DNA of 32,949 bases from Flavobacterium branchiophilum NBRC 15030 = ATCC 35035. GTDB lineage: Bacteria > Bacteroidota > Bacteroidia > Flavobacteriales > Flavobacteriaceae. Below, in pieces: positions 15,611 to 32,949 of this stretch (its first letter is position 1; each line of letters starts with the position of its first letter). The notes under the pieces were generated by a model. The model was not told the DNA's origin, made no database searches, and saw only the letters and a program-made list of their open reading frames with translations. The DNA is taken from contig NZ_MUGT01000004.1 in assembly GCF_002217205.1 (NCBI RefSeq), positions 23,943 through 56,891 on the forward strand. Reading direction: 5' to 3'. The translations under genes and the position numbers were made by a program.

Positions 15611-16084
15611 TCAAATCGAGTCGGGGAGTGGCTCATTGGGAACTATTTTGTAATCCCATTTATACTTTTTATGATTGTTGCCAATAGCGGGTATTAACAC
15701 TCCAATGCCTGCTAATACAATGCCTGGCGGTACTAATAACAGCCCATAACCACCAACTGCAATACCCGTAACAAAGACAACCGTGCCAACAACTAGGTAA
15801 ATTCCAGAGAGTAGGGCCGAGGTTAAGGACATACTTCTGATTTTTGAAATCGACTCTATAGGAATGTTTATACCATCAATAGCAATGGTACTGTCGTCTA
15901 TAATTACCAGACGGCCTTTATACGTTTTGCCGTCTGCAGTGGTAATTTTTACTCTTTTATTGGCTCTAAAAAAATCAGTTTCGTCGTCTGTTTTGCTCGA
16001 CAAAAGCACCCCTTTTTGTTGCGAAAAAACAACATGGGTTGTTAAGAGTAGTGCTAAAATAATTTTTAAAAAAATGTTCATCAT
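15611..16084 (-). CDS. Secreted/membrane SH3-like hypothetical protein
   Basis: The 157-residue product starts with a signal peptide (MMNIFLKIILALLLTTHVVFSQ). A compact beta-rich part follows, with KRVKITTADGKTYKGRLVII and DDSTIAIDGINIPIESISKI (about 43-83), resembling an SH3/Sm-like barrel. Two hydrophobic, glycine-rich segments (about 90-135) and a basic end (NNHKKYKWDYKIV) close the protein. It is a paralogue of the gene at 23085-23567, with the same order of signal peptide, KI-T-GK-G strand set, two membrane segments and a HKK-KW-YKI tail. The pair brackets the lipase/lipoprotein array. Function unknown. It stops with TGA, the only clear TGA stop in the window. Confidence 0.65.
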   Translation of the reverse strand: MMNIFLKIILALLLTTHVVFSQQKGVLLSSKTDDETDFFRANKRVKITTADGKTYKGRLVIIDDSTIAIDGINIPIESISKIRSMSLTSALLSGIYLVVGTVVFVTGIAVGGYGLLLVPPGIVLAGIGVLIPAIGNNHKKYKWDYKIVPNEPLPDSI

Positions 16085-16266: not shown

Positions 16267-16467
16267 CTATTTATTGTTGATTTTTTCCCATTTGCCACCA
16301 CAAACCCCATTAGCCACACAATGATTTGAAAGGGTATCCAATTTAAAATAGGCTTCATAATAATAACCATTGCTACGGAACTCGAAACTTTTGGACAAAG
16401 CACATTCGCTTAACACTATTGCAATAACAAAAAACAGATTTTTATTGTTTTTTACCAAAAACAACAC
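16267..16467 (-). CDS. Small hypothetical protein, possibly truncated by TAG
   Basis: The short frame overlaps the end of the beta-barrel gene by 26 bp and has only GTG (16467) or TTG starts. With TTG 16458 it would begin MVKNNKNLFFVIAIVLSECA, a plausible signal peptide, followed by a tail with two cysteines (HCVANGVCGGKWEK). The frame ends at TAG 16267-16269, but it continues open for 20 more codons (VIDSGSIIDQNEQLNLNNNK) to TGA 16204-16206, and those residues look coding. The TAG may therefore be a premature stop in a protein of about 87 residues. No family is recognised, and the gene may not be real. Confidence 0.4.
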   Translation of the reverse strand: MLFLVKNNKNLFFVIAIVLSECALSKSFEFRSNGYYYEAYFKLDTLSNHCVANGVCGGKWEKINNK

Positions 16468-17077
16468 GTTTTATTCCGAAATTGATTAATATATTTTGGG
16501 TATAATAGTTTCTTTTAAAAATAAAAGTTTCGCTACTCCCTTTGTATCCCCCAAAAAAGTATCCTTCAACATCGGTATAAACGATATATTTTTTATCAAT
16601 CATATAATTTAAACCTATTCCTAAGTTTATGTTCAAATATGATTTTGCATAATCATTGGTGTATGTATAATTGCTTTCTGTTTCATGATTCCATGCTAAA
16701 CCAAGTTTTGCACTTGGATAAAATTTAGAATCAATATTAGAATTTAAGTTAAAATGAGCATTTATAGGAATACAAATTACGCTTCCGTCAAAATGACCAT
16801 ATTCTGGTTTGTATCCATTTGTAAACGAAACACCTGTTTTAATATACTTAAATCGTGCAGTAATACTGAATTTATCATTCAAAAAATATTCAGAAATGAA
16901 TCCCGATTGAAACGAATTTTTAGGTTCATTTAATTTGTAACCTAAAATGGTATTACTACCCATTTCTATACCAAAATACCATTGCCCCTTTGGATTGACA
17001 ACTGTTTTTTTGTTTTGTGCCGTGGATAAAGTTCCAGTGATGCATAGCGATAACAAGAGTGTTTTTTTTATAAGCAT
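16442..17077 (-). CDS. Outer-membrane beta-barrel protein
   Basis: The 211-residue product has a signal peptide (MLIKKTLLLSLCITGTLSTA) followed by about eight alternating hydrophobic/polar strands rich in Tyr, Phe and Gly (for example WYFGIEMGSNTILGYKL, FSITARFKYIKTGVSF, YLNINLGIGLNYMI). It ends with a strand near NILINFGIKRVVF. This is the pattern of small porin-like outer-membrane proteins common in Bacteroidota. It lies 52 bp downstream of the secreted lipase gene, with a terminator hairpin in between whose T-tract ends about 12 bp before the start codon. It may be expressed by readthrough. The ligand or role is unknown; an outer-membrane partner of the lipase is a guess from position only. 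Confidence 0.75.
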   Translation of the reverse strand: MLIKKTLLLSLCITGTLSTAQNKKTVVNPKGQWYFGIEMGSNTILGYKLNEPKNSFQSGFISEYFLNDKFSITARFKYIKTGVSFTNGYKPEYGHFDGSVICIPINAHFNLNSNIDSKFYPSAKLGLAWNHETESNYTYTNDYAKSYLNINLGIGLNYMIDKKYIVYTDVEGYFFGGYKGSSETFIFKRNYYTQNILINFGIKRVVFGKKQ

Positions 17078-17129: not shown

Positions 17130-20100
17130 TTATTGTTTTGTGAAATTGATGTCTTGATAAAAATTATCATAAGTAATTTTAGCGATATAATATCCTGACG
17201 GCAGGTTTGAAATATCATGAATGCTTGGATTACCACTAATAGTCTTAGTCCCAAAAAGCATTCCAGATTGATTGTAAATCCGTGCAATTATAGGACTTGT
17301 TGTTGAAGGATATAAACTAGCATTTTTTAAAGAAAACACCAATGTACTTGAAACAGGAATTGGTGTAATTTGATAAAAATTGACCATCACAGGACCTGCG
17401 GGTGGCAGCGTGGTACCGTCCGTCCAACTAAAATTTTTCCATGCACTCCAACAGTTGTTTGATTTTACTCTACATCTGAATTTCAAAGGATTGTTTGTTG
17501 GGTTTGCTCCCGTTACATAAAGGTTTGCTTGCGAGCCAGTAGCAGCTGTTGCAGTGTAACCGTTTGATCCATTAAAGAAAAAATTGCCCGATATTTTTTC
17601 CCACTGCCAGTCGGAATTGATTGGTGTATAATTACCCAAATTGGCACTCAAATTATAACTCAAATAATTATTATTTGCACCACCACTCAAAGCACAAGTA
17701 GCATCTATACTACCAGAATCATAACAACCATTTATAGTAGGTTGCAACGTTCCTAGTATGATTGACCTCACGTTAGTAAGACCATTGCTAAATGTTGCTG
17801 TGATGCTACTAGACGGATTTGTAAATAATGCTTTGACAGTAATACTGTAATTATCAGAACTGATAATTTGTAAATCGGGTGTTACAGCCCAATTTGAAAC
17901 AGGACTTGGTATTTTGCAAATGTCATACGTAAAAGTAGCTGTTGTGTTTATACACATTGCAGAAGGTCCAGACAAAGCATTTGCGGGAATTGGAAAATAA
18001 GGTGCTTGGGGATTACCCGCTAATTCTTTCAATAACCACTTCGCACTTTCTTTTGTAAAAGAAGTATGTTCTGTATTTTTACTTTCACCATAATAACTAT
18101 CAAAAGGAGTTTGTCTATTTGTTGAGCAAAGTAGATTGATATTTAATGGATTACTCCAGTTTTGATTGGGTTGTAAATGTGCTAATGCAGAAAATGTACT
18201 GATAAAAGAATTACTTTCTACATATTCATTTTCCTCTGTGTAACTTCTATATCCAGCTTCACTTGCACCACCTTCTATCGATTCTCTTAATTTTTTACCA
18301 AGTTTTAAAAAGCCACCAGGTACTACATCAAGACTTCCTCTAATGTCTTGATTATTTACATTCAAAGTCCATCTTGGATGTGGCAAACATGGATTACAGT
18401 TTAATCCTGTTAATGGATTCCAATGTAATGAGAATGCTGTAGTTTGTCCATCTCCTTTAAATACAGTTCCTGTTGAGCCGTAACTTGGGCAAAAAACATC
18501 TTGGAAACGAGCCAATGTTATGGTAGAACTTTGAAAAGGCCAAAGACCTCGAATATAAATTTTTGTTCTTAAAAAAGTTTGTCCTTCATAGCCTTGTTTT
18601 GTTCCTGTTAGTGAACCATTGGTCATAGCAATTTTTCTAAATGATGTGTTTGATACTGGATAGCCATTTGAACCTGCCACACCATTTGCATTTAAGGCAT
18701 TATAATAAGTATTGAAATAAGATGAGCCTAATAAATTATGATTGGGTGAAGTTCTGGCATATTCAAAGTTGGTAATACTCATTTGCTGACCTGCAACTGA
18801 ATTTAGATCGTTGTATTTTTCTACTGCTGATTTATTTCCCATTGGGTCTGCCATGAACCAAATATTGGCTTGAGCCCCAACTGGAATATTTGCTCCCAAA
18901 TGGGGACTATCGACACTTACCCAAAGTCGTGCATTGTGTTTCCAACTACTATCTCCTGTTTGTGCAAATTTCTTTTCCATATAGGCCAGTGCATAACGGG
19001 TTATTTGTCCGCCCATACTTGGACCAATTAAAACCAAACCATTTGTGCTTCCTGCGGTGGTTTGCAAGGGTTTTACATAACTTCTAATAAATGCAACCAG
19101 TGTTTTGGCATTTCGTTCTATATAATCGGCACCGCCATCTACTTGCACCATATTTGGGCGGGTTTCAAAATGACCTGGAAACGGAATGGGAACAAAAACC
19201 TGTTTGGTTGGCTGTGTAGGATGCACAAACTCATAATTGGGCTGATTGATGACGATTACATCGTAACCCAAGGTGCGTAATTCTTGCATTAGATTAATTG
19301 GACCAGGTGCTCCACTGGATAAAATGCCTTGATAAATCATCGAATCCTCAATTGATTCATGGCTTATGGGGTTGAAGGCAACAGTAATCATGGGATTGCT
19401 GCCAAAACCATTAAAAGTTATTTTTTTGTTCTCGTTAAAACATTTTGGGTCGCTTTCGCAGTCGCAATCTTGAACTTTTCGTTTGTCGCCAGGGTCAAAA
19501 CCATCAACAATAATTATGGGTTTTAGCATTTTTTTGGAGGTATTGGCATAGGCATAAAACACGGTATATTCAATTTGTCCTTTGAATGATAAATCGCCAG
19601 TATTGTATCCTGCAAAAGCTTCGGTTGCAGCAATTTCGGCAGTAGATGATGGAAAGATACCTTTGTCCCGAAGGGTTTCGGTACACAAAGTAGCCGTTGT
19701 TCTGCTATAATTGGCAGCCTCTACATTTACATAAAGGGTTGCATAGGTGGTAATAACAGAATTGTCAGTAAATGTGGCAATAAAAGTTAAAGTTTTAAGA
19801 CCAGAATTAGGATAGACCACATTTTTTGAGTTGATCAAATAACTACCATTACTGATAATTGCAACTGCGGTATTGGTTGCGGAATCTTCAAATTTTACAC
19901 TTAAATTTTTAATGGCAGTAGTAGCGTTGTTAAAAGTAAAATAATCGTTAAAATTGAAACTGATGCTGCTGCCCGAAACAACATTTTTTAAAGGAGAAGC
20001 GACCAAGATTTTTTTAGCAATAAACGAAGTTTTTCCTGCAACAGCAACGAATTGATTGTTGGTTACTGTTATCCCCGATAGTGCAACATTATCTTCATTG

Positions 20101-20477
20101 ATATTGAGTCGATGAAACGAAGTGTTGATAATGCCAATATCAACTGCATTCGGAATAGTAGTTCCAGCGATTCGGAGTTTTAAAGCATCAGAATTTATAA
20201 ACAAGGATTGGTTTGATGCTTGGTGCAATTCGGATAAGGCTTGAACAAAATGTTTGTTGTTGGAAATATTATTTTCAGTCGTGTTATAGTTGGTAAGATT
20301 AGAAAAATCTACAACTTTGTCTAATAATATGCCCGACGAGATCTGGGCAGTTGGTAAATTGGCGAGCATCACGGGCCAATTGGGATGCTCTTCGATTGCG
20401 GTAATTGTTGAACCGTTTTGGGCTGTGATTTTGCCTACTGCAAAAAACAGCAATACTGTAATGAAAATTTTTTTCAT
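17130..20477 (-). CDS. Secreted lipase-like alpha/beta hydrolase with T9SS C-terminal sorting domain
   Basis: The 1115-residue product starts with a signal peptide (MKKIFITVLLFFAVGKITAQ). Residues ~20-280 are a beta-rich N-terminal region. Residues ~320-700 form a hydrolase domain: KPIIIVDGFDPGDKRK, YDVIVINQPNYEF, and a nucleophile elbow in LVLIGPSMGGQITRYALAYM, with Ser487 in a G-x-S-x-G pentapeptide. This is the pattern of lipases/esterases of the PGAP1-like group. Residues ~830-1030 look like adhesive or Ig/PKD-like modules, and the last ~75 residues (IARIYNQSGMLFG, ISNLPSGYYIAKIT) are a type A T9SS sorting domain, so the protein is exported across the outer membrane. Catalytic Asp and His were not assigned. 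The first ~38 codons and upstream 21 bp are about 97% identical to the truncated copies at 21629-21762 and 22888-23021, then the sequences diverge sharply. The substrate is unknown. Confidence 0.85.
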   Translation of the reverse strand: MKKIFITVLLFFAVGKITAQNGSTITAIEEHPNWPVMLANLPTAQISSGILLDKVVDFSNLTNYNTTENNISNNKHFVQALSELHQASNQSLFINSDALKLRIAGTTIPNAVDIGIINTSFHRLNINEDNVALSGITVTNNQFVAVAGKTSFIAKKILVASPLKNVVSGSSISFNFNDYFTFNNATTAIKNLSVKFEDSATNTAVAIISNGSYLINSKNVVYPNSGLKTLTFIATFTDNSVITTYATLYVNVEAANYSRTTATLCTETLRDKGIFPSSTAEIAATEAFAGYNTGDLSFKGQIEYTVFYAYANTSKKMLKPIIIVDGFDPGDKRKVQDCDCESDPKCFNENKKITFNGFGSNPMITVAFNPISHESIEDSMIYQGILSSGAPGPINLMQELRTLGYDVIVINQPNYEFVHPTQPTKQVFVPIPFPGHFETRPNMVQVDGGADYIERNAKTLVAFIRSYVKPLQTTAGSTNGLVLIGPSMGGQITRYALAYMEKKFAQTGDSSWKHNARLWVSVDSPHLGANIPVGAQANIWFMADPMGNKSAVEKYNDLNSVAGQQMSITNFEYARTSPNHNLLGSSYFNTYYNALNANGVAGSNGYPVSNTSFRKIAMTNGSLTGTKQGYEGQTFLRTKIYIRGLWPFQSSTITLARFQDVFCPSYGSTGTVFKGDGQTTAFSLHWNPLTGLNCNPCLPHPRWTLNVNNQDIRGSLDVVPGGFLKLGKKLRESIEGGASEAGYRSYTEENEYVESNSFISTFSALAHLQPNQNWSNPLNINLLCSTNRQTPFDSYYGESKNTEHTSFTKESAKWLLKELAGNPQAPYFPIPANALSGPSAMCINTTATFTYDICKIPSPVSNWAVTPDLQIISSDNYSITVKALFTNPSSSITATFSNGLTNVRSIILGTLQPTINGCYDSGSIDATCALSGGANNNYLSYNLSANLGNYTPINSDWQWEKISGNFFFNGSNGYTATAATGSQANLYVTGANPTNNPLKFRCRVKSNNCWSAWKNFSWTDGTTLPPAGPVMVNFYQITPIPVSSTLVFSLKNASLYPSTTSPIIARIYNQSGMLFGTKTISGNPSIHDISNLPSGYYIAKITYDNFYQDINFTKQ

Positions 20478-20498
20478 AGTTTTGTAAAGATTAAATTA
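20365..20498 (-). repeat. Homogenised 5' block shared by three lipase starts
   Basis: The block covers the first ~38 codons of the lipase gene plus 21 bp upstream. It differs from 21629-21762 at about 4 of 134 positions, and 22888-23021 is a third, slightly more diverged copy. Downstream of the block the three genes are only distantly similar, so the edge is abrupt. Confidence 0.75.
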
Positions 20499-20534
20499 GT
20501 GAATTTTTTAGTGAATTTTTATTGTTTAATTATT

Positions 20535-20557
20535 GGGTACTATTTGGCGTAGTACCC
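20535..20557. terminator. Hairpin between lipoprotein 1 and the lipase gene
   Basis: A perfect 8-bp stem (GGGTACTA/TAGTACCC) with a 7-nt loop. In minus-strand transcription it follows the lipoprotein 1 stop by 8 bp, where a terminator is expected, yet the run of T's (TTTTTTATTT) lies on the plus-strand side. Confidence 0.55.
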
Positions 20558-20565
20558 TTTTTTAT

Positions 20566-21177
20566 TTAAGGAAATGTTGCATTTGGGAGTGTGTTCAAGT
20601 TTAAGTCAAACCTTCCGTCGGTAATTGTTATAAAATCATTAGGATTGTCATAGCGAACAAACTTACCTTTGAAATTTCCAGATAAAATCCAATTTCCAGT
20701 TAAACTACCATTAAATCGGGTTATCTTTATTTCTCCTTGATTTACAATTGAACCGTAATAAGCATAGTTTGATATATTAGCATCCCATATCTTAAAATAA
20801 ATATGATCAATTAAAGCACTATCAATGCCGTCATGAAAATTGCTATTAAATAAAGGGTAAATACCAATTGCATTTACTAAAAGTTCTTTGAAATGAATTG
20901 TCATTTGAAATCCGACAGCACTTTTGCCATCTTTAACAACAATTTCACTCCATGGTAGTGTGCTACTTCCAGTATAAACTAAACCATGCCCAGAAGGGCC
21001 AGTAAGCGTACCAGTTGGATCTCTTGGGATGTACACCTTGCCGTTTATGGTAACACCAAAGGTGTTGGCTCCCATCTGGGTTTCGGGTGGTAGTTTTGAT
21101 GCTTCAGTTTGAACATCGTCTTTGGAGCAGCCTACAAGTAACAATGTTGCTACAAGAGTTAAAATTTGTTTTTTCAT
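20566..21177 (-). CDS. Surface lipoprotein 1 of the array
   Basis: The 203-residue product has a lipoprotein signal peptide (MKKQILTLVATLLLVGC) with the lipid-bearing cysteine at residue 17 and the following SKDD, which resembles the Bacteroidota signal for export of lipoproteins to the cell surface. The mature part shares two blocks with lipoproteins 2 and 3: LPPETQMGANTFG..INGKVYIP near the start, and SGNFKGKF.....ITITDGRFDLNLNTL at the end. The middle is divergent. I recall this GANTFG-INGK family as an uncharacterised flavobacterial lipoprotein domain (possibly DUF6252). The signal peptide codons match those of lipoprotein 2 almost exactly. The gene lies between repeat copy A (upstream) and the full-length lipase gene (88 bp downstream). 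Confidence 0.8.
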   Translation of the reverse strand: MKKQILTLVATLLLVGCSKDDVQTEASKLPPETQMGANTFGVTINGKVYIPRDPTGTLTGPSGHGLVYTGSSTLPWSEIVVKDGKSAVGFQMTIHFKELLVNAIGIYPLFNSNFHDGIDSALIDHIYFKIWDANISNYAYYGSIVNQGEIKITRFNGSLTGNWILSGNFKGKFVRYDNPNDFITITDGRFDLNLNTLPNATFP

Positions 21178-21483
21178 TTTTTTTAGAATTAAAATTAATT
21201 TGAATAGAGATAAATCATTTTGGTAATTATCATTTTTTTAGGAAGAATCCATTTTTTTACTTTTTATAATTCCTGTGGTTGTTTGGGTTGTCATTTTTGT
21301 TTGAGTTTAATTTTTTAAAATACGGCTTTGTTGTTATGAGTCATTTTCAAAATAGTTGTGATGCACTGATTCTTGGCAACAAAAGTAGCGTTCGCTTAAA
21401 ATAAAGTGTCCCAAATTCTGCATTTTTACGGAATTTGGGACACATTTACAGAATTTGGGACAAAGTTTAACAGTTTTTGTTCC
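21175..21483 (-). repeat. Array repeat, copy A
   Basis: About 96% identical to copy B (roughly 11 substitutions and a small indel in ~309 bp). On the minus strand it starts with the 17-bp araC tail (GGAACAAAAACTGTTAA), then the araC-type terminator hairpin (21443-21406), and ends at the ATG of lipoprotein 1. It is joined on its upstream side to truncated lipase A. Confidence 0.9.
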
Positions 21484-21741
21484 AAAAATCGAAAATAGTT
21501 TGTTCCCAATTGCGTGGTCTGCATGAGAGAGGTTGTAATTGCCTCTATTAAAATCATACAAATTAGAAAACATTGCGGTTTTGTTATACAAAAAACCAGC
21601 TGTAATTTGTGATTGGTTGAGGTTAGAAAGCATCACGGGCCAATTGGGATGCTCTTCGATTGCGGTAATTGTTGAGCCGTTTTGGGCTGTGGTTTTGCCT
21701 ATTGCAAAAAACAGCAATACTGTAATGAAAATTTTTTTCAT
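21334..21741 (-). pseudogene. Truncated lipase A, fused to the array repeat
   Basis: The frame begins as the lipase does (MKKIFITVLLFFAIGKTTAQ, then NGSTITAIEEHPNWPVML) and stays homologous to the full-length lipase N-terminus to about residue 86 (NLSHADHAIGNKLFSIF). It then runs into the array repeat, which supplies 49 unrelated residues (GTKTVKLCPKFCK and on) to a TAA at 21334-21336. The hydrolase, adhesive modules and T9SS tail are all missing. The fusion still encodes a 135-residue protein with a signal peptide and a cysteine-rich tail, so expression cannot be excluded. Compared with copy B, all five substitutions between the signal peptide and the junction are synonymous. Confidence 0.75.
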
Positions 21742-21801
21742 ACTTTTGTAAAGATTAAATTATTAATTTTTTTGTAAATTTTTATTGTTTAATTGTAATT
21801 G

Positions 21802-21823
21802 AGAGGCGACGGCAATCGCCTCT
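21802..21823. terminator. Hairpin between lipoprotein 2 and truncated lipase A
   Basis: An 8-bp stem (AGAGGCGA/TCGCCTCT) with a 6-nt loop, 5 bp after the lipoprotein 2 stop in the minus direction. As with the other array hairpins, the T-rich side faces the plus strand. Confidence 0.55.
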
Positions 21824-21828
21824 TTATT

Positions 21829-22434
21829 TTAATGATTTAGTGTGGCTAGATTTATATCAAATCTACCATCCGTAACTTGTATTGTTTCTGATGGATTGTC
21901 TTTGTTATACAAAGTGCAGTTAAATGTGCCAGAATAATTACCATTTGGATAATCAAATCGAGAAATTACTATTGTTCCAGCATTGGCTGCGGACCAGTAA
22001 GTTTTATTTATCCCATTTTCTGATATACCTGCAATAATTTGATTATTATTTGGACCATACGAATATAATTCGCCATTTGATTGTCCAACAATATAACCAC
22101 CATTGCCAGTCGACATGTTTTTTATCCATAAAATAATACCGGCACCATTAATATCTTTTTTATTGGCAATTTCTAATTGCCAATAATCGCCTCCAATAGT
22201 CGGTGGGTGAAAATTTCCGCCCGCATTTAATTTTAAACCATAAAGTGGCGACCCTCCAATAGCTTGACTTCCATTTTTAGGAATTAAAAGTTTACCATTG
22301 ATATAACACCCAGCAGTATTTGCTCCTGTTGTTGTGGCAGGAGGTAGGGTGTCGGCTGGGGTTTCGGGTGCGGAGTCTTTTGAGCAACTGAATAGCAACA
22401 ATGTTGCTACAAGAGTTAAAATTTGTTTTTTCAT
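21829..22434 (-). CDS. Surface lipoprotein 2 of the array
   Basis: The 201-residue product carries the lipoprotein signal peptide MKKQILTLVATLLLFSC, followed by SKDSAPE after the acylated cysteine. Mature landmarks are LPPATTTGANTAGCYINGKL near the start, and NYSGTFNCTLYNKDNP plus IQVTDGRFDINLATL at the end. The central ~110 residues (glycine/asparagine rich, with KNMSTGNGGYIVGQSNGE) differ strongly from lipoproteins 1 and 3. It is preceded by repeat copy B and followed by a hairpin and truncated lipase A. The combination of near-identical upstream DNA and signal peptide with a divergent body makes it look like exchangeable cargo. Function unknown; surface exposure is inferred from the residues after Cys. 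Confidence 0.8.
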   Translation of the reverse strand: MKKQILTLVATLLLFSCSKDSAPETPADTLPPATTTGANTAGCYINGKLLIPKNGSQAIGGSPLYGLKLNAGGNFHPPTIGGDYWQLEIANKKDINGAGIILWIKNMSTGNGGYIVGQSNGELYSYGPNNNQIIAGISENGINKTYWSAANAGTIVISRFDYPNGNYSGTFNCTLYNKDNPSETIQVTDGRFDINLATLNH

Positions 22435-22742
22435 TTTTTTTAGAATTAAAATTAATTTGAATTGAAATAAATCATTTTGGTAATCATCATTTTTTTAGGA
22501 GGAATCCATTTTTTTACTTTTTATAATTCCTGTGGTTGTTTGGGCTGTCATTTTTGTTTGAGTTTTATTTTTTTTTAAATACGGCTTTGTTGTTATGAGT
22601 CATTTTCAAAATAGTTTTGATGCACTGTTTTTTGGCAACAAAAGTAGCGTTCGCTTAAAATAAAGTGTCCCAAATTCTGCATTTTTACGGAATTTGGGAC
22701 ACATTTACAGAATTTGGGACAAAGTTTAACAGTTTTTGTTCC
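22432..22742 (-). repeat. Array repeat, copy B
   Basis: Differs from copy C at about 5 of 311 positions, closer than it is to copy A. It has the same parts: araC tail, terminator hairpin (22702-22665), and an AT-rich leader ending at the lipoprotein 2 ATG. Confidence 0.9.
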
Positions 22743-23000
22743 AAAAATCGAAAATAGTTTGTTACCAATTGCGTGGTCTGCATGAGAGAGGTTGTAATTG
22801 CCTCTATTAAAATCATACAAATTAGAAAACATTGCAGTTTTGTTATACAAAAAACCAGCTGTGATTTGAGATTGGTTGAGGTTAGAAAGCATCACGGGCC
22901 AATTGGGATGCTCTTCGATTGCGGTAATTGTTGAACCGTTTTGGGCTGTGATTTTGCCTACTGCGAAAAATAGCACTACTGTAATAAAAAACTTTTTCAT
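22593..23000 (-). pseudogene. Truncated lipase B, fused to the array repeat
   Basis: The layout is the same as truncated lipase A: a signal peptide (MKKFFITVVLFFAVGKITAQ), the lipase N-terminal segment to about residue 86, an identical junction, and a repeat-encoded tail ending at TAA 22593. Against copy A it shows several amino-acid changes inside the signal peptide. There are none in residues 21-86 (five synonymous substitutions), and three amino-acid changes in the repeat-encoded tail (ES to KT, H to Q). Identical junctions show that A and B derive from one fusion event followed by duplication or conversion. It is listed as a pseudogene because the catalytic domain is gone, but the frame is intact. 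Confidence 0.75.
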
Positions 23001-23056
23001 TGTTTTGAATGGATTAAATTAATGAATTAGTGAATTATTTTTTGTTTTTTTAATTG

Positions 23057-23078
23057 AGAGGCGATGTCAGTCGCCTCT
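23057..23078. terminator. Hairpin between the SH3-like gene and truncated lipase B
   Basis: The same 8-bp stem as at 21802-21823 (AGAGGCGA/TCGCCTCT) with a different 6-nt loop (TGTCAG instead of CGGCAA). It lies 6 bp after the stop of the SH3-like gene. Confidence 0.55.
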
Positions 23079-23084
23079 TCTTGT

Positions 23085-23567
23085 TTAATTATTTGGTTTG
23101 CTATTGGTTATGATTTTGTAGGTCCATTTTATTTTTTTGTGTTTATTTTGTGAGGTTAATGGAAGAATAAATAAAAGTGACCCTGTTGGTAAACCAATAT
23201 ATGCAGCTAAACCAAGATCGTCACTTTTTTTAGCAAAAGGTATGTTATATAATGAAGGTGCAAGTATGCCACAACCAAGTGTTATCAAAACCGTTTCCAT
23301 AAATGTTGAAACGCCTGATGCTTTTCTGATTTTTACAATTTGGTCTAAATTTATTATCTGGTCTTTTATTTTTATTGTTGTAGAATCAATAATTGTAAAT
23401 TGTCCTGCAATATTCTTTCCATTGGTGGTTTTAATTTTAATTCGGTGATGTTCCTTTATAAATTCTAAATTACCATTTTTTTGATTAAAAAGTGATATGC
23501 CTTGCTGGGAGAGCATTGTATTGGTAATAAATAATAATACCAAGATGATTTTTAATTTGATTTTCAT
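23085..23567 (-). CDS. Secreted/membrane SH3-like hypothetical protein (paralogue of 15611-16084)
   Basis: The 160-residue product begins with a signal peptide (MKIKLKIILVLLFITNTMLS). It then has a beta-rich segment (HRIKIKTTNGKNIAGQFTII, STTIKIKDQIINLDQIVKI), two hydrophobic segments (about 92-105 and 122-140) and a basic end (NKHKKIKWTYKII). The arrangement and spaced residues match the protein at 15611-16084, so they are paralogues at opposite ends of the array. It lies between lipoprotein 3 (31 bp upstream) and truncated lipase B (84 bp downstream), and it is the only gene interrupting the regular lipoprotein-lipase alternation. Function unknown. Confidence 0.65.
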   Translation of the reverse strand: MKIKLKIILVLLFITNTMLSQQGISLFNQKNGNLEFIKEHHRIKIKTTNGKNIAGQFTIIDSTTIKIKDQIINLDQIVKIRKASGVSTFMETVLITLGCGILAPSLYNIPFAKKSDDLGLAAYIGLPTGSLLFILPLTSQNKHKKIKWTYKIITNSKPNN

Positions 23568-23598
23568 GTTTTACTTATTTAATTGTGAATTTTATTGT

Positions 23599-24201
23599 TT
23601 AAGGAAAACTGGTACTTGATATTGTAGAAGAGTTAATATCAAATCGCCCACTTTTAATATCAATCTCATCTGTACCATTATACAATCGTAACTTTCCACT
23701 AAAATTGCCTGATATAATGTTATCATACTTTGTAATTGTAACTTTGCCAGAATTTTGATACGAACTATAGTATTTATAAGAATTTGTTGCACTGTCATAA
23801 ATACGGGCATATACATAATTTTGCATCAAACCATTAATACTTGACTGAAAATTAGATTCCTGCCAGATATAATCTCCAAGTTGCTGTTGGTGCAAACCTT
23901 GTAAATGAATCATCATACTACTGGCTGGAATACCCGTTACACAATTAGTAATTTGAATTTCATTAAATTCTCTATTCCCACTTGGGTCTCCCCAAAATAT
24001 CACCCCTTTCTGTCCAGGATTTAAAGTAGAACTTGAGCAATCACGGGGGTAAAAAACTTGTCCGTTGATAATGCAGCCAAAGGTATTGGCACCTGTTTGG
24101 GTTTCGGGTGGTAGTTTTGCTAAAGGGTCTTCTATAACAGGTTCGTCTTTGCTGCACCCAAGCAGCATCATTGCTGTAATAGCTAAAAATAGTTTTTTCA
24201 T
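23599..24201 (-). CDS. Surface lipoprotein 3 of the array
   Basis: The 200-residue product has its own signal peptide (MKKLFLAITAMMLLGC, different from lipoproteins 1 and 2) and SKDEP after the cysteine, again resembling the surface-export signal. Family blocks are LPPETQTGANTFGCIINGQV followed by FYPRD, and ISGNFSGKLRLYNGTDEIDI plus SGRFDINSSTI. It is closer to lipoprotein 1 than to lipoprotein 2 in the first third (ETQ.GANTFG..ING.V..PRD) and at the extreme end (..FP). Repeat copy C precedes it, then araC, so this is likely the oldest position of the unit. Function unknown. Confidence 0.8.
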   Translation of the reverse strand: MKKLFLAITAMMLLGCSKDEPVIEDPLAKLPPETQTGANTFGCIINGQVFYPRDCSSSTLNPGQKGVIFWGDPSGNREFNEIQITNCVTGIPASSMMIHLQGLHQQQLGDYIWQESNFQSSINGLMQNYVYARIYDSATNSYKYYSSYQNSGKVTITKYDNIISGNFSGKLRLYNGTDEIDIKSGRFDINSSTISSTSFP

Positions 24202-24509
24202 TTTTTTTAGAATTAAAATTAATTTGAATTGAAATAAATCATTTTGGTAATCATCATTTTTTTAGGAGGAATCCATTTTTTTACTTTTTATAATTCCTGT
24301 GGTTGTTTGTGCTGTTATTTTTGTTTGAGTTTTATTTTTTTTTAAATACGGCTTTGTTGTTATGAGTCATTTTCAAAATAGTTATGATGCACTGATTCTT
24401 GGCAACAAAAGTAGCGTTCGCTTAAAATAAAGTGTCCCAAATTCTGCATTTTTACGGAATTTGGGACACATTTACAGAATTTGGGACAAAGTTTAACAGT
24501 TTTTGTTCC
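24199..24509 (-). repeat. Array repeat, copy C (araC-linked, probably ancestral)
   Basis: On the minus strand this copy starts inside the intact araC gene, using its last 17 bp, and includes the araC terminator. Copies A and B carry the same 17 bp detached from any araC gene, which suggests that copy C is the source. It contains GAATTTGGGACA twice in direct orientation and once inverted. Confidence 0.9.
24424..24469 (-). terminator. araC terminator (repeated in each array repeat)
   Basis: On the minus strand a perfect 13-bp stem (GTGTCCCAAATTC / GAATTTGGGACAC, 24469-24457 with 24444-24432) with a 12-nt loop is followed by TTTATTTT. Identical hairpins lie at 21406-21443 and 22665-22702, after the two truncated lipase segments. 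Confidence 0.7.
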
Positions 24510-25596
24510 GATAGTCGGTGGGAGTACTTTGAGTGTATTTAAGAAAAGCCCTATAAAAACTAGATTTGGAATTGAATCCACATTCTAGTCCAATAGCCGC
24601 TATGGTATAATCTTCGTATTGTTTGTCTTTCAATATCTCGATGGCTTTTTGTACCCTCAATTCATTGATGTAATCTGTAAAATTATTTTTTAAATTATTC
24701 TTTAAAATTTTAGATATTTTTCTGTCGCTCATATTCATTGATTCGGACAATTGTACCAGCGTAAATTTGGGACTCAAATAGCCGTGATGTGCTTTGATAT
24801 GCTGTTCGATTTCAGTAAATTGGAGGTCCAATGCCGGTTTTGGAGGCACACTACTTGGAATTTTGATTTGAATTATTTTTCGTAATTCTATCCGTTCGGT
24901 TAGCAAATTGTATTTAAAAAAACCGTGATAAGCCACCCAAAAAATAATCCATACAGACGACAACCGCAATGGGTAATATATTGGTATATTGGGACTTATC
25001 ACATTTCGGAGATTGAAAATGATGGCCACAATCCATAAAACCAAAATCACCAAGCCAAACCCAAAAAATTTTTTGAGCCACTGCATGTTGTCATAACTGG
25101 CAATGTTTTCGGGTATTTTGGATTGTGGCAAAAAAATATAAATCAGTTTGATATATAGAAAAAGGGTGTACCCAACGTTGATAATTTCCTCTATTTGTGC
25201 ATATTGAGCTACAATAAAATTGTTGTTTTCATGATGATAAAAAGGATACAATACCAATCGTAGGGCAATTTCTGCGGCAAACAACATTAACGAGATACCC
25301 ACAAAAGATTGAATTTGCTTTTCAATTTTGATGTAATGTACTACAAATGTGTAAAAAGAAGGAATAATCAATACGTAAAAAGGCAATAGCATTTTTCGTT
25401 CAAAAAAATTAAGCGAAATATAATGGTAATCTGCCAGCGTAATTTGTAGGTTGTTGATCGTAAAAAAAAGCACAAAAAAGTTCAGATAAATAATAGATTT
25501 ATCTTTTCGATGTGGCGAAAAATTGGTGTAAATGATAAAGCACACCCCAATAAACACCCCAATAAATAGGGCTATTTTAAATATTTCTGCTATCAT
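24493..25596 (-). CDS. Membrane-anchored AraC-family transcriptional regulator
   Basis: The 367-residue protein has about seven hydrophobic segments in residues 1-235 (for example ALFIGVFIGVCFIIYTNF, FFGFGLVILVLWIVAIIF) and a C-terminal AraC DNA-binding domain at about 258-365. That domain has two helix-turn-helix units, KFTLVQLSESMNMSDRKIS and DYTIAAIGLECGFNSKSSFY, followed by RAFLKYTQSTPTDYR. Membrane-bound AraC regulators are frequent in Bacteroidota and are thought to sense envelope signals. The last 17 bp of the gene belong to the array repeat. It is 27 bp downstream of ribE and heads the array, so it is the best local candidate for its regulator (inference from position). Confidence 0.88.
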   Translation of the reverse strand: MIAEIFKIALFIGVFIGVCFIIYTNFSPHRKDKSIIYLNFFVLFFTINNLQITLADYHYISLNFFERKMLLPFYVLIIPSFYTFVVHYIKIEKQIQSFVGISLMLFAAEIALRLVLYPFYHHENNNFIVAQYAQIEEIINVGYTLFLYIKLIYIFLPQSKIPENIASYDNMQWLKKFFGFGLVILVLWIVAIIFNLRNVISPNIPIYYPLRLSSVWIIFWVAYHGFFKYNLLTERIELRKIIQIKIPSSVPPKPALDLQFTEIEQHIKAHHGYLSPKFTLVQLSESMNMSDRKISKILKNNLKNNFTDYINELRVQKAIEILKDKQYEDYTIAAIGLECGFNSKSSFYRAFLKYTQSTPTDYRNKNC

Positions 25597-25623
25597 TATC
25601 CTAATTCAAAAAAAATGCAAATG

Positions 25624-31743: not shown

Positions 31744-32883
31744 ATGAGTGGTATTTACTTGCATATTCCTTTTTGTAAACAGGCTTGTCATTATTGTGAT
31801 TTTCATTTTTCGACAGTTCTCAAGCATCAATCCAATTGGGTAACTGCTTTAGGTAGAGAACTCGAATTACGAAAAAATGAATTTCAAAATACAGCTGTAT
31901 CAACGATTTATTTTGGAGGTGGTACCCCAAGTTTGCTTACCATTAAGGAATTGGAATATATTTTAGATCAAATCAAAAAACAGTATGAAGTGGTGCCTCA
32001 ACCAGAAATTACACTTGAGGCCAACCCCGACGATTTGACAGCCGAAAAATTAAAACAATATTTGCATTTGGGCATCAATCGTTTGAGTATTGGGGTGCAA
32101 TCTTTTTTTGACGATGATTTGACCATGATGAATAGGGCACATTCTGCCTCCGAAGCCCTGAAGGGTTTGCAATTGGCTACGCAATATTTTGATAACATTT
32201 CTATCGACCTGATTTATGGGATTCCAAACATGTCGGCCCAAAAATGGTTGCACAACATTCAAACGGCAATACATTTAGGCATTCCACATATTTCAAGTTA
32301 TGCCCTTACCGTAGAGCCCAAAACAATGCTTCATCATTTGATACAAAAAGCAGTTTTACCACCTCTGAACGACGAGTTGGCTTCTGAACATTTTCAAATT
32401 TTGGTTCAGGAACTCACCCAAAACGGATTTATCCATTACGAATTATCGAATTTTAGCAAGCCAAATTATTTTTCACAAAACAATTCGGCCTATTGGTTGG
32501 GTAAAAAATATTTGGGTTTTGGTCCTTCGGCTCATAGTTTTGATGGTACATCTAGATCCTGGAATGTGTCTAATAATAATTTGTATATCAAATCGTTAGA
32601 ACAAAACAAACTGCCATCTGAAATGGAAATACTAACCCAGAACGATTTATATAACGAGTATGTGATGACAGGATTGCGAACTATTTGGGGTGTTGATTTT
32701 TTGGAAGTCGAACGCCGATTTGGGTTGCAAATGGTACTTTATTTGCAAAAACAAGCTTCCAAGTTTATACAAAATGATGTACTTGTTATTGAAAATAACG
32801 TATTGAAAACAACCCACAAAGGGCAATTTTTGTGCGATGGAATTGCTAGTGATTTGTTTATACCAAATATACATATAAAATAG
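31744..32883 (+). CDS. hemW: HemW-type radical SAM protein (coproporphyrinogen III oxidase-like)
   Basis: The 379-residue product begins MSGIYLHIPFCKQACHYCDF, with the radical-SAM cluster cysteines Cys11, Cys15 and Cys18. It continues with TIYFGGGTPSLL, TLEANPDDLT, GINRLSIGVQSFFDDDL and SAYWLGKKYLGFGPSAHSFD. The cysteine pattern, the missing HemN N-terminal extension and the length of about 380 favour HemW, a haem-binding chaperone-like protein, over true HemN. The C-terminus is normal to SDLF; the last residues (IPNIHIK) and the TAG stop are encoded by the contig-end repeat, so the repeat has replaced the original gene end. Function is probably unaffected. Confidence 0.92.
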   Translation: MSGIYLHIPFCKQACHYCDFHFSTVLKHQSNWVTALGRELELRKNEFQNTAVSTIYFGGGTPSLLTIKELEYILDQIKKQYEVVPQPEITLEANPDDLTAEKLKQYLHLGINRLSIGVQSFFDDDLTMMNRAHSASEALKGLQLATQYFDNISIDLIYGIPNMSAQKWLHNIQTAIHLGIPHISSYALTVEPKTMLHHLIQKAVLPPLNDELASEHFQILVQELTQNGFIHYELSNFSKPNYFSQNNSAYWLGKKYLGFGPSAHSFDGTSRSWNVSNNNLYIKSLEQNKLPSEMEILTQNDLYNEYVMTGLRTIWGVDFLEVERRFGLQMVLYLQKQASKFIQNDVLVIENNVLKTTHKGQFLCDGIASDLFIPNIHIK

Positions 32884-32949
32884 TCCAATCTACTTGTTCT
32901 TTTTTGCTAAAATTATCCAAAAAAATAGTTCCGTAGCCCAGCTATGCAA
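32857..32949 (-). repeat. Contig-end dispersed repeat, right copy (inverted)
   Basis: This is the inverted counterpart of 11-103, with five mismatches in 93 positions. It overlaps the last 27 bp of hemW. Its inner edge (TATACCAAATATACATATAA) is the same in all three copies in the window. Confidence 0.85.

What the first reader, a model, noticed from the sequence alone, without database searches (positions are those of the whole stretch)
20365..25596. Tandem lipase-lipoprotein array with conserved flanks and variable cargo
Three ~310-bp repeats (21175-21483, 22432-22742, 24199-24509) are 96-98% identical and each leads straight into a lipoprotein start codon. Two are also joined to a 258-bp lipase 5' fragment about 95% identical between copies. 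Lipoproteins 1 and 2 share nearly identical signal-peptide codons, yet their bodies share only short end blocks (GANT.G..INGK and GRFD.NL.TL). Sharp edges between near-identical and divergent DNA point to gene conversion or cassette exchange, not simple duplication. The result may be a source of variation in surface lipoproteins of this strain.
Basis: partly seen in the sequence, partly recalled or inferred. Interest (0 to 1): 0.65.

Follow-up and report, generated by a model that had tools for sequence, protein, structure and literature searches.

The report
Recombining lipoprotein cassettes sharing one switch
A bacterium, probably a Flavobacterium, carries three distantly related lipoprotein genes behind almost identical copies of one control region, a pattern best explained by recombination between shared flanks beside a lipase gene rather than by simple gene duplication.

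Summary
Three 309-311-bp repeats (96-98% identical) each run into a lipoprotein start codon, and two are fused to 258-bp lipase 5' stubs (95% identical).

It begins in the last codons of the neighbouring AraC-type regulator gene and carries a putative operator-promoter (two direct half-sites, an inverted half-site, a TAnnTTTG box). A similar arrangement follows about half of the regulator homologues tested. Exact half-sites occur in this draft genome only in these three repeats.

The lipoproteins belong to one NCBIfam family (Riean_0653) but to three separate subfamilies; a single clade is rejected (p-AU 0.0007). The lipase leaders are mosaic (12:0 against 0:69 sites). Simple duplication alone therefore fails. 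Recombination between shared flanks is supported, and 5'-homogenised tandem lipoproteins occur in relatives, up to seven copies.

In relatives the lipoprotein often sits directly upstream of a lipase, and their trees agree, so a lipase-partner role is likely but unproven. A Riemerella family member is needed for haemolysis without being haemolytic itself. Variation within this species is untested. Every copy has its own promoter, which argues against silent-cassette switching.

The parts
24493..25596 (-). AraC-type regulator, 367 aa, HTH at the C-terminus; N-terminal part looks membrane-spanning by eye
   Evidence: Pfam HTH_18 67.4 bits against cut-off 33.6; matches at E<=1e-40 in 9 of the 198 other genomes sampled
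24199..24509 (-). R3: repeat copy at its probable original place, starting in the last codons of the regulator gene
   Evidence: G050 has a 78% match to its operator part right after its own regulator gene
24406..24492 (-). Putative operator-promoter in R3: direct half-sites at 24471-24487 and 24451-24467, an inverted half-site, and the TACTTTTG box at 24406-24413
   Evidence: first 111 aligned columns of the repeat identical in all three copies
23599..24201 (-). Lipoprotein 3 (Riean_0653 family), nearest the Chryseobacterium sp. FH1 copy, 50% in the body
   Evidence: NF052634 129.1 bits against 57; tree
23085..23567 (-). Small protein with a signal-like N-terminus, weak Sm/Hfq-like resemblance only
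   Evidence: Pfam hits all under cut-off; 81% identical gene near regulator homologue and lipoprotein in G143
22743..23000 (-). Lipase 5' stub 2, fused to R2
22432..22742 (-). R2: second copy of the operator-promoter repeat
21829..22434 (-). Lipoprotein 2 (Riean_0653 family), nearest the G143 copy, 78% in the body
   Evidence: NF052634 136 bits against 57; tree
21484..21741 (-). Lipase 5' stub 1, fused to R1; its first part is closer to the full lipase, the rest matches stub 2
21175..21483 (-). R1: third copy of the operator-promoter repeat
20566..21177 (-). Lipoprotein 1 (Riean_0653 family), the copy next to the full lipase; nearest a G064 copy, 72% in the body
   Evidence: NF052634 119.6 bits against 57; tree
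17130..20477 (-). Full lipase/esterase, 1115 aa, GPSMGG motif, possible C-terminal secretion tail
   Evidence: Pfam DUF676 22.4 bits against 20.3; secretion-tail models under cut-off; motif identical in 3 of 3 aligned
16442..17077 (-). Outer-membrane beta-barrel protein, 52 nt after the lipase
   Evidence: Pfam OMP_b-brl 31.8 bits against 28.7; relatives near family lipoproteins in L054, L102 and L123
15611..16084 (-). Second small Sm-like protein, resembling 23085-23567
   Evidence: 33% to the G143 gene whose best match is 23085-23567; 37% to one in G016

Best explanation
The locus is a lipase/lipoprotein module beside an AraC-type regulator. The 310-bp repeat is the regulator's downstream operator-promoter plus leader, copied in front of two further lipoproteins so that all three answer to one switch. 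A duplication joined the regulator's 3' end and promoter to a lipase 5' end once, and the joint was then copied (inferred from two identical joints). The lipoprotein bodies lie between two homologous flanks: promoter and signal peptide upstream, lipase leader downstream. Recombination across these flanks keeps them alike while bringing together bodies of different, older subfamilies, and the lipases behind lipoproteins 2 and 3 survive only as stubs. Shown: the anatomy, non-monophyly of bodies, mosaic lipase leaders, similar arrays in some relatives. Inferred: that the regulator binds the motif, the order of events, and that each lipoprotein is an accessory partner of a lipase.
For: Repeat starts inside the regulator's last codons, and R1 and R2 carry the same tail. 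TAnnTTTG box 74-82 nt after the stop in 6 of 10 regulator loci tested, window included; in 5 of these 6 the direct repeat is matched by at most 8 of 300 shuffles, and in G050 (41 of 300) the inverted repeat by 0 of 300. Exact half-site 6 times in the genome, all inside R1-R3. Body tree: three window copies in separate places, p-AU 0.00074; lipo1+lipo2 4.2e-5. Lipase leaders: 12 sites join full lipase with stub1 and 0 the stubs from -30 to nt 66; 0 and 69 after that, Fisher p 1.4e-14. In 5 of 10 array loci at least one pair has same-amino-acid codons identical more often in the first 40 columns than in the middle at p<0.01. G022 has seven lipoproteins and lipase ORFs; G174, 97.4% identical over 2105 nt of one flank, has two and no lipase hit in 16 kb. 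Lipase and adjacent-lipoprotein distances agree, Mantel r 0.90, p 0.0002, 13 loci. Riean_0653 mutants have greatly reduced haemolysis, restored by plasmid in the one tested, while the protein is not haemolytic (PMC7881567, abstract and passages).
Against: No second strain of the species was available. In the window the codon test is not significant (p 0.066-0.32); nor in G064, G148 (0.066) and the second locus of this genome. Of the 10 regulator loci, G138 and G009 copy a show neither a significant repeat nor the box, G009 copy b has the box (66 nt) without a significant repeat, and G016 has the direct repeat without the box; the inverted repeats of G149 and G192 are not significant. Only 4 of 12 regulator matches, window included, lie near a family lipoprotein; three others sit at contig ends. 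Of 20 loci fetched by lipoprotein search 11 had no lipase hit in the stretch. Distal lipoprotein copies also correlate with the lipases over all 13 loci (r 0.81), and swapping lipo2 or lipo3 for lipo1 lowers the A+B value only from 0.77 to 0.69-0.70. Secretion-tail models fall under their cut-offs.
Confidence: 0.6

Rival explanations
1. Lipase-immunity module: the lipase attacks competitors, lipoprotein 1 protects the producer, and lipoproteins 2 and 3 are orphan immunity genes kept after their lipases were lost or taken up from rivals.
For: Lipoprotein next to lipase with agreeing trees; family lipoproteins without a lipase are common (11 of 20 loci); lipase stubs behind lipo2 and lipo3; copy-number turnover G022/G174.
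Against: A family member is needed for haemolysis in Riemerella (PMC7881567, passages), which fits an activating partner better than an inhibitor. The Pfam and NCBIfam scans hit no family named as immunity. No activity of this lipase is known.
Confidence: 0.22
2. Simple tandem duplication of promoter-lipoprotein-lipase followed by divergence of the lipoproteins.
For: The two identical lipase/regulator joints do need a duplication; R3 at the regulator looks original.
Against: Body tree rejects one clade; flanks are 96-98% identical while body dS between the window copies is 1.55, 1.87 and beyond the formula's range; mosaic leaders.
Confidence: 0.06
3. Antigenic or phase variation locus that switches surface lipoproteins by programmed recombination.
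For: Direct repeats of about 310 and 567 bp flank the bodies and could delete or exchange them.
Against: All three copies carry the promoter repeat and start codon, so none is silent by sequence; dN below dS in bodies. No recombinase was noticed by eye in the ORF list, but none was searched for.
Confidence: 0.08
4. Assembly artefact: collapsed or wrongly joined repeats.
For: Draft genome of 240 contigs with repeats of about 310-567 bp.
Against: The three repeats differ at defined sites, the contig is 83 kb, and other genomes show tandem copies of the same family.
Confidence: 0.04

Closest known systems
Riean_0653 family proteins (NCBIfam NF052634)
   Same: All three lipoproteins score far above the model cut-off; the named member is needed for full haemolysis though not itself a haemolysin (PMC7881567, abstract and passages).
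   Different: The passages read do not describe tandem arrays, a lipase neighbour or a shared operator. The Riemerella locus itself was not examined here.
Secreted phospholipase effector with lipoprotein immunity (Tle/Tli type; named from memory)
   Same: Lipase gene beside a small lipoprotein gene, with orphan lipoproteins.
   Different: A possible type IX-like tail rather than a type VI link (type VI genes were not searched for); no family named as immunity was hit; the Riemerella phenotype points to an activating role.
Lipoproteins with barrel folds such as LpqH, TbpB and NHBA
   Same: Predicted barrel of lipoprotein 1: LpqH Z 9.4 (rmsd 2.6, 104 aligned), TbpB and NHBA Z about 6-7.
   Different: Identity 9-17% to LpqH; Foldseek's best E-value is 0.0059. 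Resemblance of fold only.
Cassette and gene-conversion systems for surface proteins (recalled)
   Same: Shared flanks with differing bodies.
   Different: No silent copies; every body has its own promoter repeat.

Membership tests
Riean_0653 family (NF052634) | Score above curated cut-off of 57 bits over the whole model | tested here: met
   119.6, 136 and 129.1 bits
Riean_0653 family (NF052634) | Role in haemolysis, as for the named member | not testable with these tools
   Only PMC7881567, another species
Bacterial lipoprotein | Signal peptide with lipobox cysteine | tested here: inconclusive
   Cys 17 identical in 17 of 17 aligned; Pfam LPAM_1 17.2 and 13.4 bits for lipo1 and lipo2, under cut-off 20, and not listed for lipo3
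Serine lipase/esterase (DUF676) | Model score and GxSxG nucleophile motif | tested here: met
   DUF676 22.4 against 20.3 bits; PGAP1 16.2 against 24.3, under cut-off; GPSMGG identical in 3 of 3
Type IX secretion cargo | C-terminal sorting domain above cut-off | tested here: inconclusive
   TIGR04183 22.0 against 23; PF18962 16.6 against 27
AraC-type regulator | HTH_18 domain above cut-off | tested here: met
   67.4 against 33.6 bits
Operator of this regulator type | Repeated half-sites before a promoter box, conserved next to homologous regulators | tested here: inconclusive
   Box at 74-82 nt in 6 of 10 loci, direct repeat matched by at most 8 of 300 shuffles in 5 of those; the other 4 loci lack one or both. 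Two partial matches in G165 were not tested
Operator of this regulator type | Binding by this regulator | not testable with these tools
   Needs a binding or reporter assay
Lipase effector/immunity pair | Lipoprotein protects against the lipase | not testable with these tools
   No activity data
Silent-cassette antigenic variation | Promoterless silent copies feeding one expressed copy | tested here: not met
   All three copies carry the repeat with its promoter box and a start codon

The most novel reading that the evidence does not exclude
The operator-promoter with signal peptide on one side and the lipase leader on the other act as docking flanks. Lineages use them to capture and stack lipase-partner lipoproteins of foreign subfamilies by homologous recombination, placing each new one at once under the same dedicated regulator, so that a regulon grows by copying its operator together with its cargo.
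Probability: 0.3. Interest if true: 0.68.

Novelty: new variant of a known kind. Interest (0 to 1): 0.5.

Why it matters
It links a little-studied lipoprotein family to a lipase and a regulator with a proposed operator, which gives the Riemerella haemolysis phenotype a testable partner. It is also a clear natural case in which recombination between shared flanks, not point divergence alone, builds a set of lipoproteins behind one promoter type, with copy number and lipase content differing between near relatives.

Tried and rejected
Simple duplication as the only process was rejected by the tree and the mosaic leaders. Phage origin: megablast of 20400-25600 against phage records gave no match. 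RNA element in the repeat: Rfam gave five matches, all far below their gathering scores; the hairpin is better read as operator and possibly terminator, and the RNA fold z of -3.27 does not separate these. Positive selection on bodies: dN below dS in all body pairs compared, though many dS values are near saturation. Literature: searches for tandem lipoproteins with gene conversion (one unrelated paper), lipase with lipoprotein and T9SS in Riemerella (one review), phospholipase immunity with gene conversion (none) and lipoprotein antigenic variation in Flavobacterium (none) gave no such array; only listings were seen. A search for locus tags around Riean_0653 found nothing. A solved-structure sequence search with the lipase gave only three capsid proteins at E about 0.05. 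Fold search: no Foldseek match at E<=0.001.

What was left out of counts: the body tree used 35 of the fetched lipoproteins (3 of 7 G022 copies; short, interrupted and several single-copy ones were left out; G149 is partial). The lipase tree used 14 lipases without internal stops; L085, L094 and L096, split or incomplete, were left out. The Mantel test used 13. Of the 26 other genomes with a lipase match only the five closest were examined for neighbours. Of the four loci, L017 (match to the C-terminal part only) has no family lipoprotein and L018 is cut by the contig end.
Full report
The observation. Two are fused to 258-nt lipase 5' stubs, 95.0% identical to each other. Edges are sharp. The whole repeat is found nowhere else in the genome, apart from a 34-nt match of its start-codon end. 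None of the 198 other genomes sampled holds a full copy; 48 have short matches at E<=0.001, the best being 78 nt in G050.

What the repeat is. R3 begins in the last codons of the AraC-type regulator gene (24493-25596), and R1 and R2 carry the same gene tail, so they are copies of the region downstream of the regulator. The first 111 aligned columns are identical in all three copies; 14 of the other 200 vary (Fisher p 0.003, counts entered by hand). This part holds two direct half-sites 20 nt apart, an inverted half-site and a TACTTTTG box 79 nt after the stop. TAnnTTTG is the -7 motif described for Bacteroides and found in a strong Flavobacterium promoter (PMC2483708, passages). I tested 9 other regulator loci (the two partial G165 matches were not tested). 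G050, G143, G013, G149 and G192 have the box at 74-82 nt. Their direct repeats were reached by 41, 0, 8, 1 and 2 of 300 shuffles, their inverted repeats by 0, 0, 2, 170 and 134. G009 copy b has the box at 66 nt without a significant repeat; G016 has the direct repeat (3 of 300) without the box; G138 and G009 copy a have neither. The half-site letters differ between species. In this genome the exact half-site occurs six times, all in R1-R3; the other 17 matches have two mismatches, against 10 for the reversed control pattern. That the regulator binds there is inference.

The lipoproteins. All three belong to NF052634, the Riean_0653 family. A tree of 35 bodies puts lipo1 with G064, G156 and F. 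buctense copy a, lipo2 with G143, G149, G161 and G016, and lipo3 near the Chryseobacterium copy. One clade for all three is rejected (p-AU 0.00074) and so is lipo1 with lipo2 (4.2e-5). The closest relative of lipo2 (78% in the body) lies in G143 near a 55% regulator homologue and beside an 81% relative of the small protein 23085-23567, with no lipase hit in the 15 kb fetched.

Recombination inside the window. From -30 to nt 66 of the lipase reading frame, 12 sites join full lipase with stub1, none join the two stubs, and 6 join full lipase with stub2. Nucleotides 67-112 hold no differences. From nt 113 on none join full lipase with stub1, 69 join the stubs and 2 join full lipase with stub2; three sites overall differ in all. 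The Fisher test (p 1.4e-14) uses the first two classes.

Relatives. Of ten array loci tested, window included, five (G022, G174, G085, G161 contig 274, F. buctense) have at least one pair at p<0.01 for more identical same-amino-acid codons in the first 40 columns than in the middle. G161 contig 27 is at 0.034 and G148 at 0.066; G064, the second locus of this genome and the window are not significant. The 21 pairs of G022 are not independent; its best p is 4.6e-5. G022 has seven copies followed by a lipase in two ORFs. G174 shares one flank at 97.4% over 2105 nt but has two copies and no lipase hit within the 16 kb fetched; its copies match those of G022 at about 75-82%; the other flank does not align. 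From the listing I count, by eye, 10 of the 47 genomes with an over-cut-off member as holding tandem copies.

The lipase link. Of 20 loci fetched by lipoprotein search, eight have lipase ORFs directly downstream (two of them, L085 and L096, in two ORFs; one, L094, reaching only model position 720), one has a short remnant, and 11 have none in the stretch; one of these 11, L103, ends soon after the lipoprotein. Seven loci found by lipase search (L015, L016, L050-L054) have the lipoprotein directly upstream, one to three copies, but these were the closest lipase matches; L017 has none, L018 is cut by the contig end, and the other 21 genomes with weaker lipase matches were not examined. The lipase tree and the adjacent lipoproteins agree: Mantel r 0.90 over 13 loci and 0.77 within the eight A+B loci. 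With distal copies the values are 0.81 and 0.36; replacing only the window copy by lipo2 or lipo3 gives 0.69-0.70. So the pairing is supported across loci but weakly for the window alone.

Function. In Riemerella anatipestifer four transposon mutants in Riean_0653 had greatly reduced haemolysis, a plasmid copy restored it in the mutant tested, and the recombinant protein was not haemolytic (PMC7881567; abstract and passages). I did not see its neighbours. This fits an accessory partner of a membrane-active enzyme. An immunity role for the extra copies stays open. The predicted fold of lipoprotein 1 (pLDDT 76) is rich in strands and closest to LpqH, Z 9.4, which does not settle function.

Limits. 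No second strain was available, so variation within the species is untested. The genome is a draft of 240 contigs.

Noticed in passing
11-103 and 32857-32949: A 93-nt inverted repeat at both window ends is a dispersed element: 61 matches in the genome, at least ten of them as head-to-head pairs, as in a short palindromic mobile element.
   Followed up: partly
L019 4571-9381 (own genome, contig 187): Second lipase with two family lipoproteins and a 169-aa protein between them; a different lipase clade.
   Followed up: partly
L085 5240-12894: Seven tandem family lipoproteins before a lipase read in two ORFs; copies share their ends and differ in the middle.
   Followed up: partly
15611-16084 and 23085-23567: Two related small proteins with faint Sm/Hfq-like resemblance bracket the module; relatives lie near the regulator homologue in G143 and G016.
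   Followed up: partly
24764-24773: One further exact GTCCCAAATT lies inside the regulator coding sequence; chance or an autoregulatory site.
   Followed up: no
L088 7280-7468 and L092 1414-1946: Truncated or interrupted family lipoproteins in other arrays, signs of decay.
   Followed up: no
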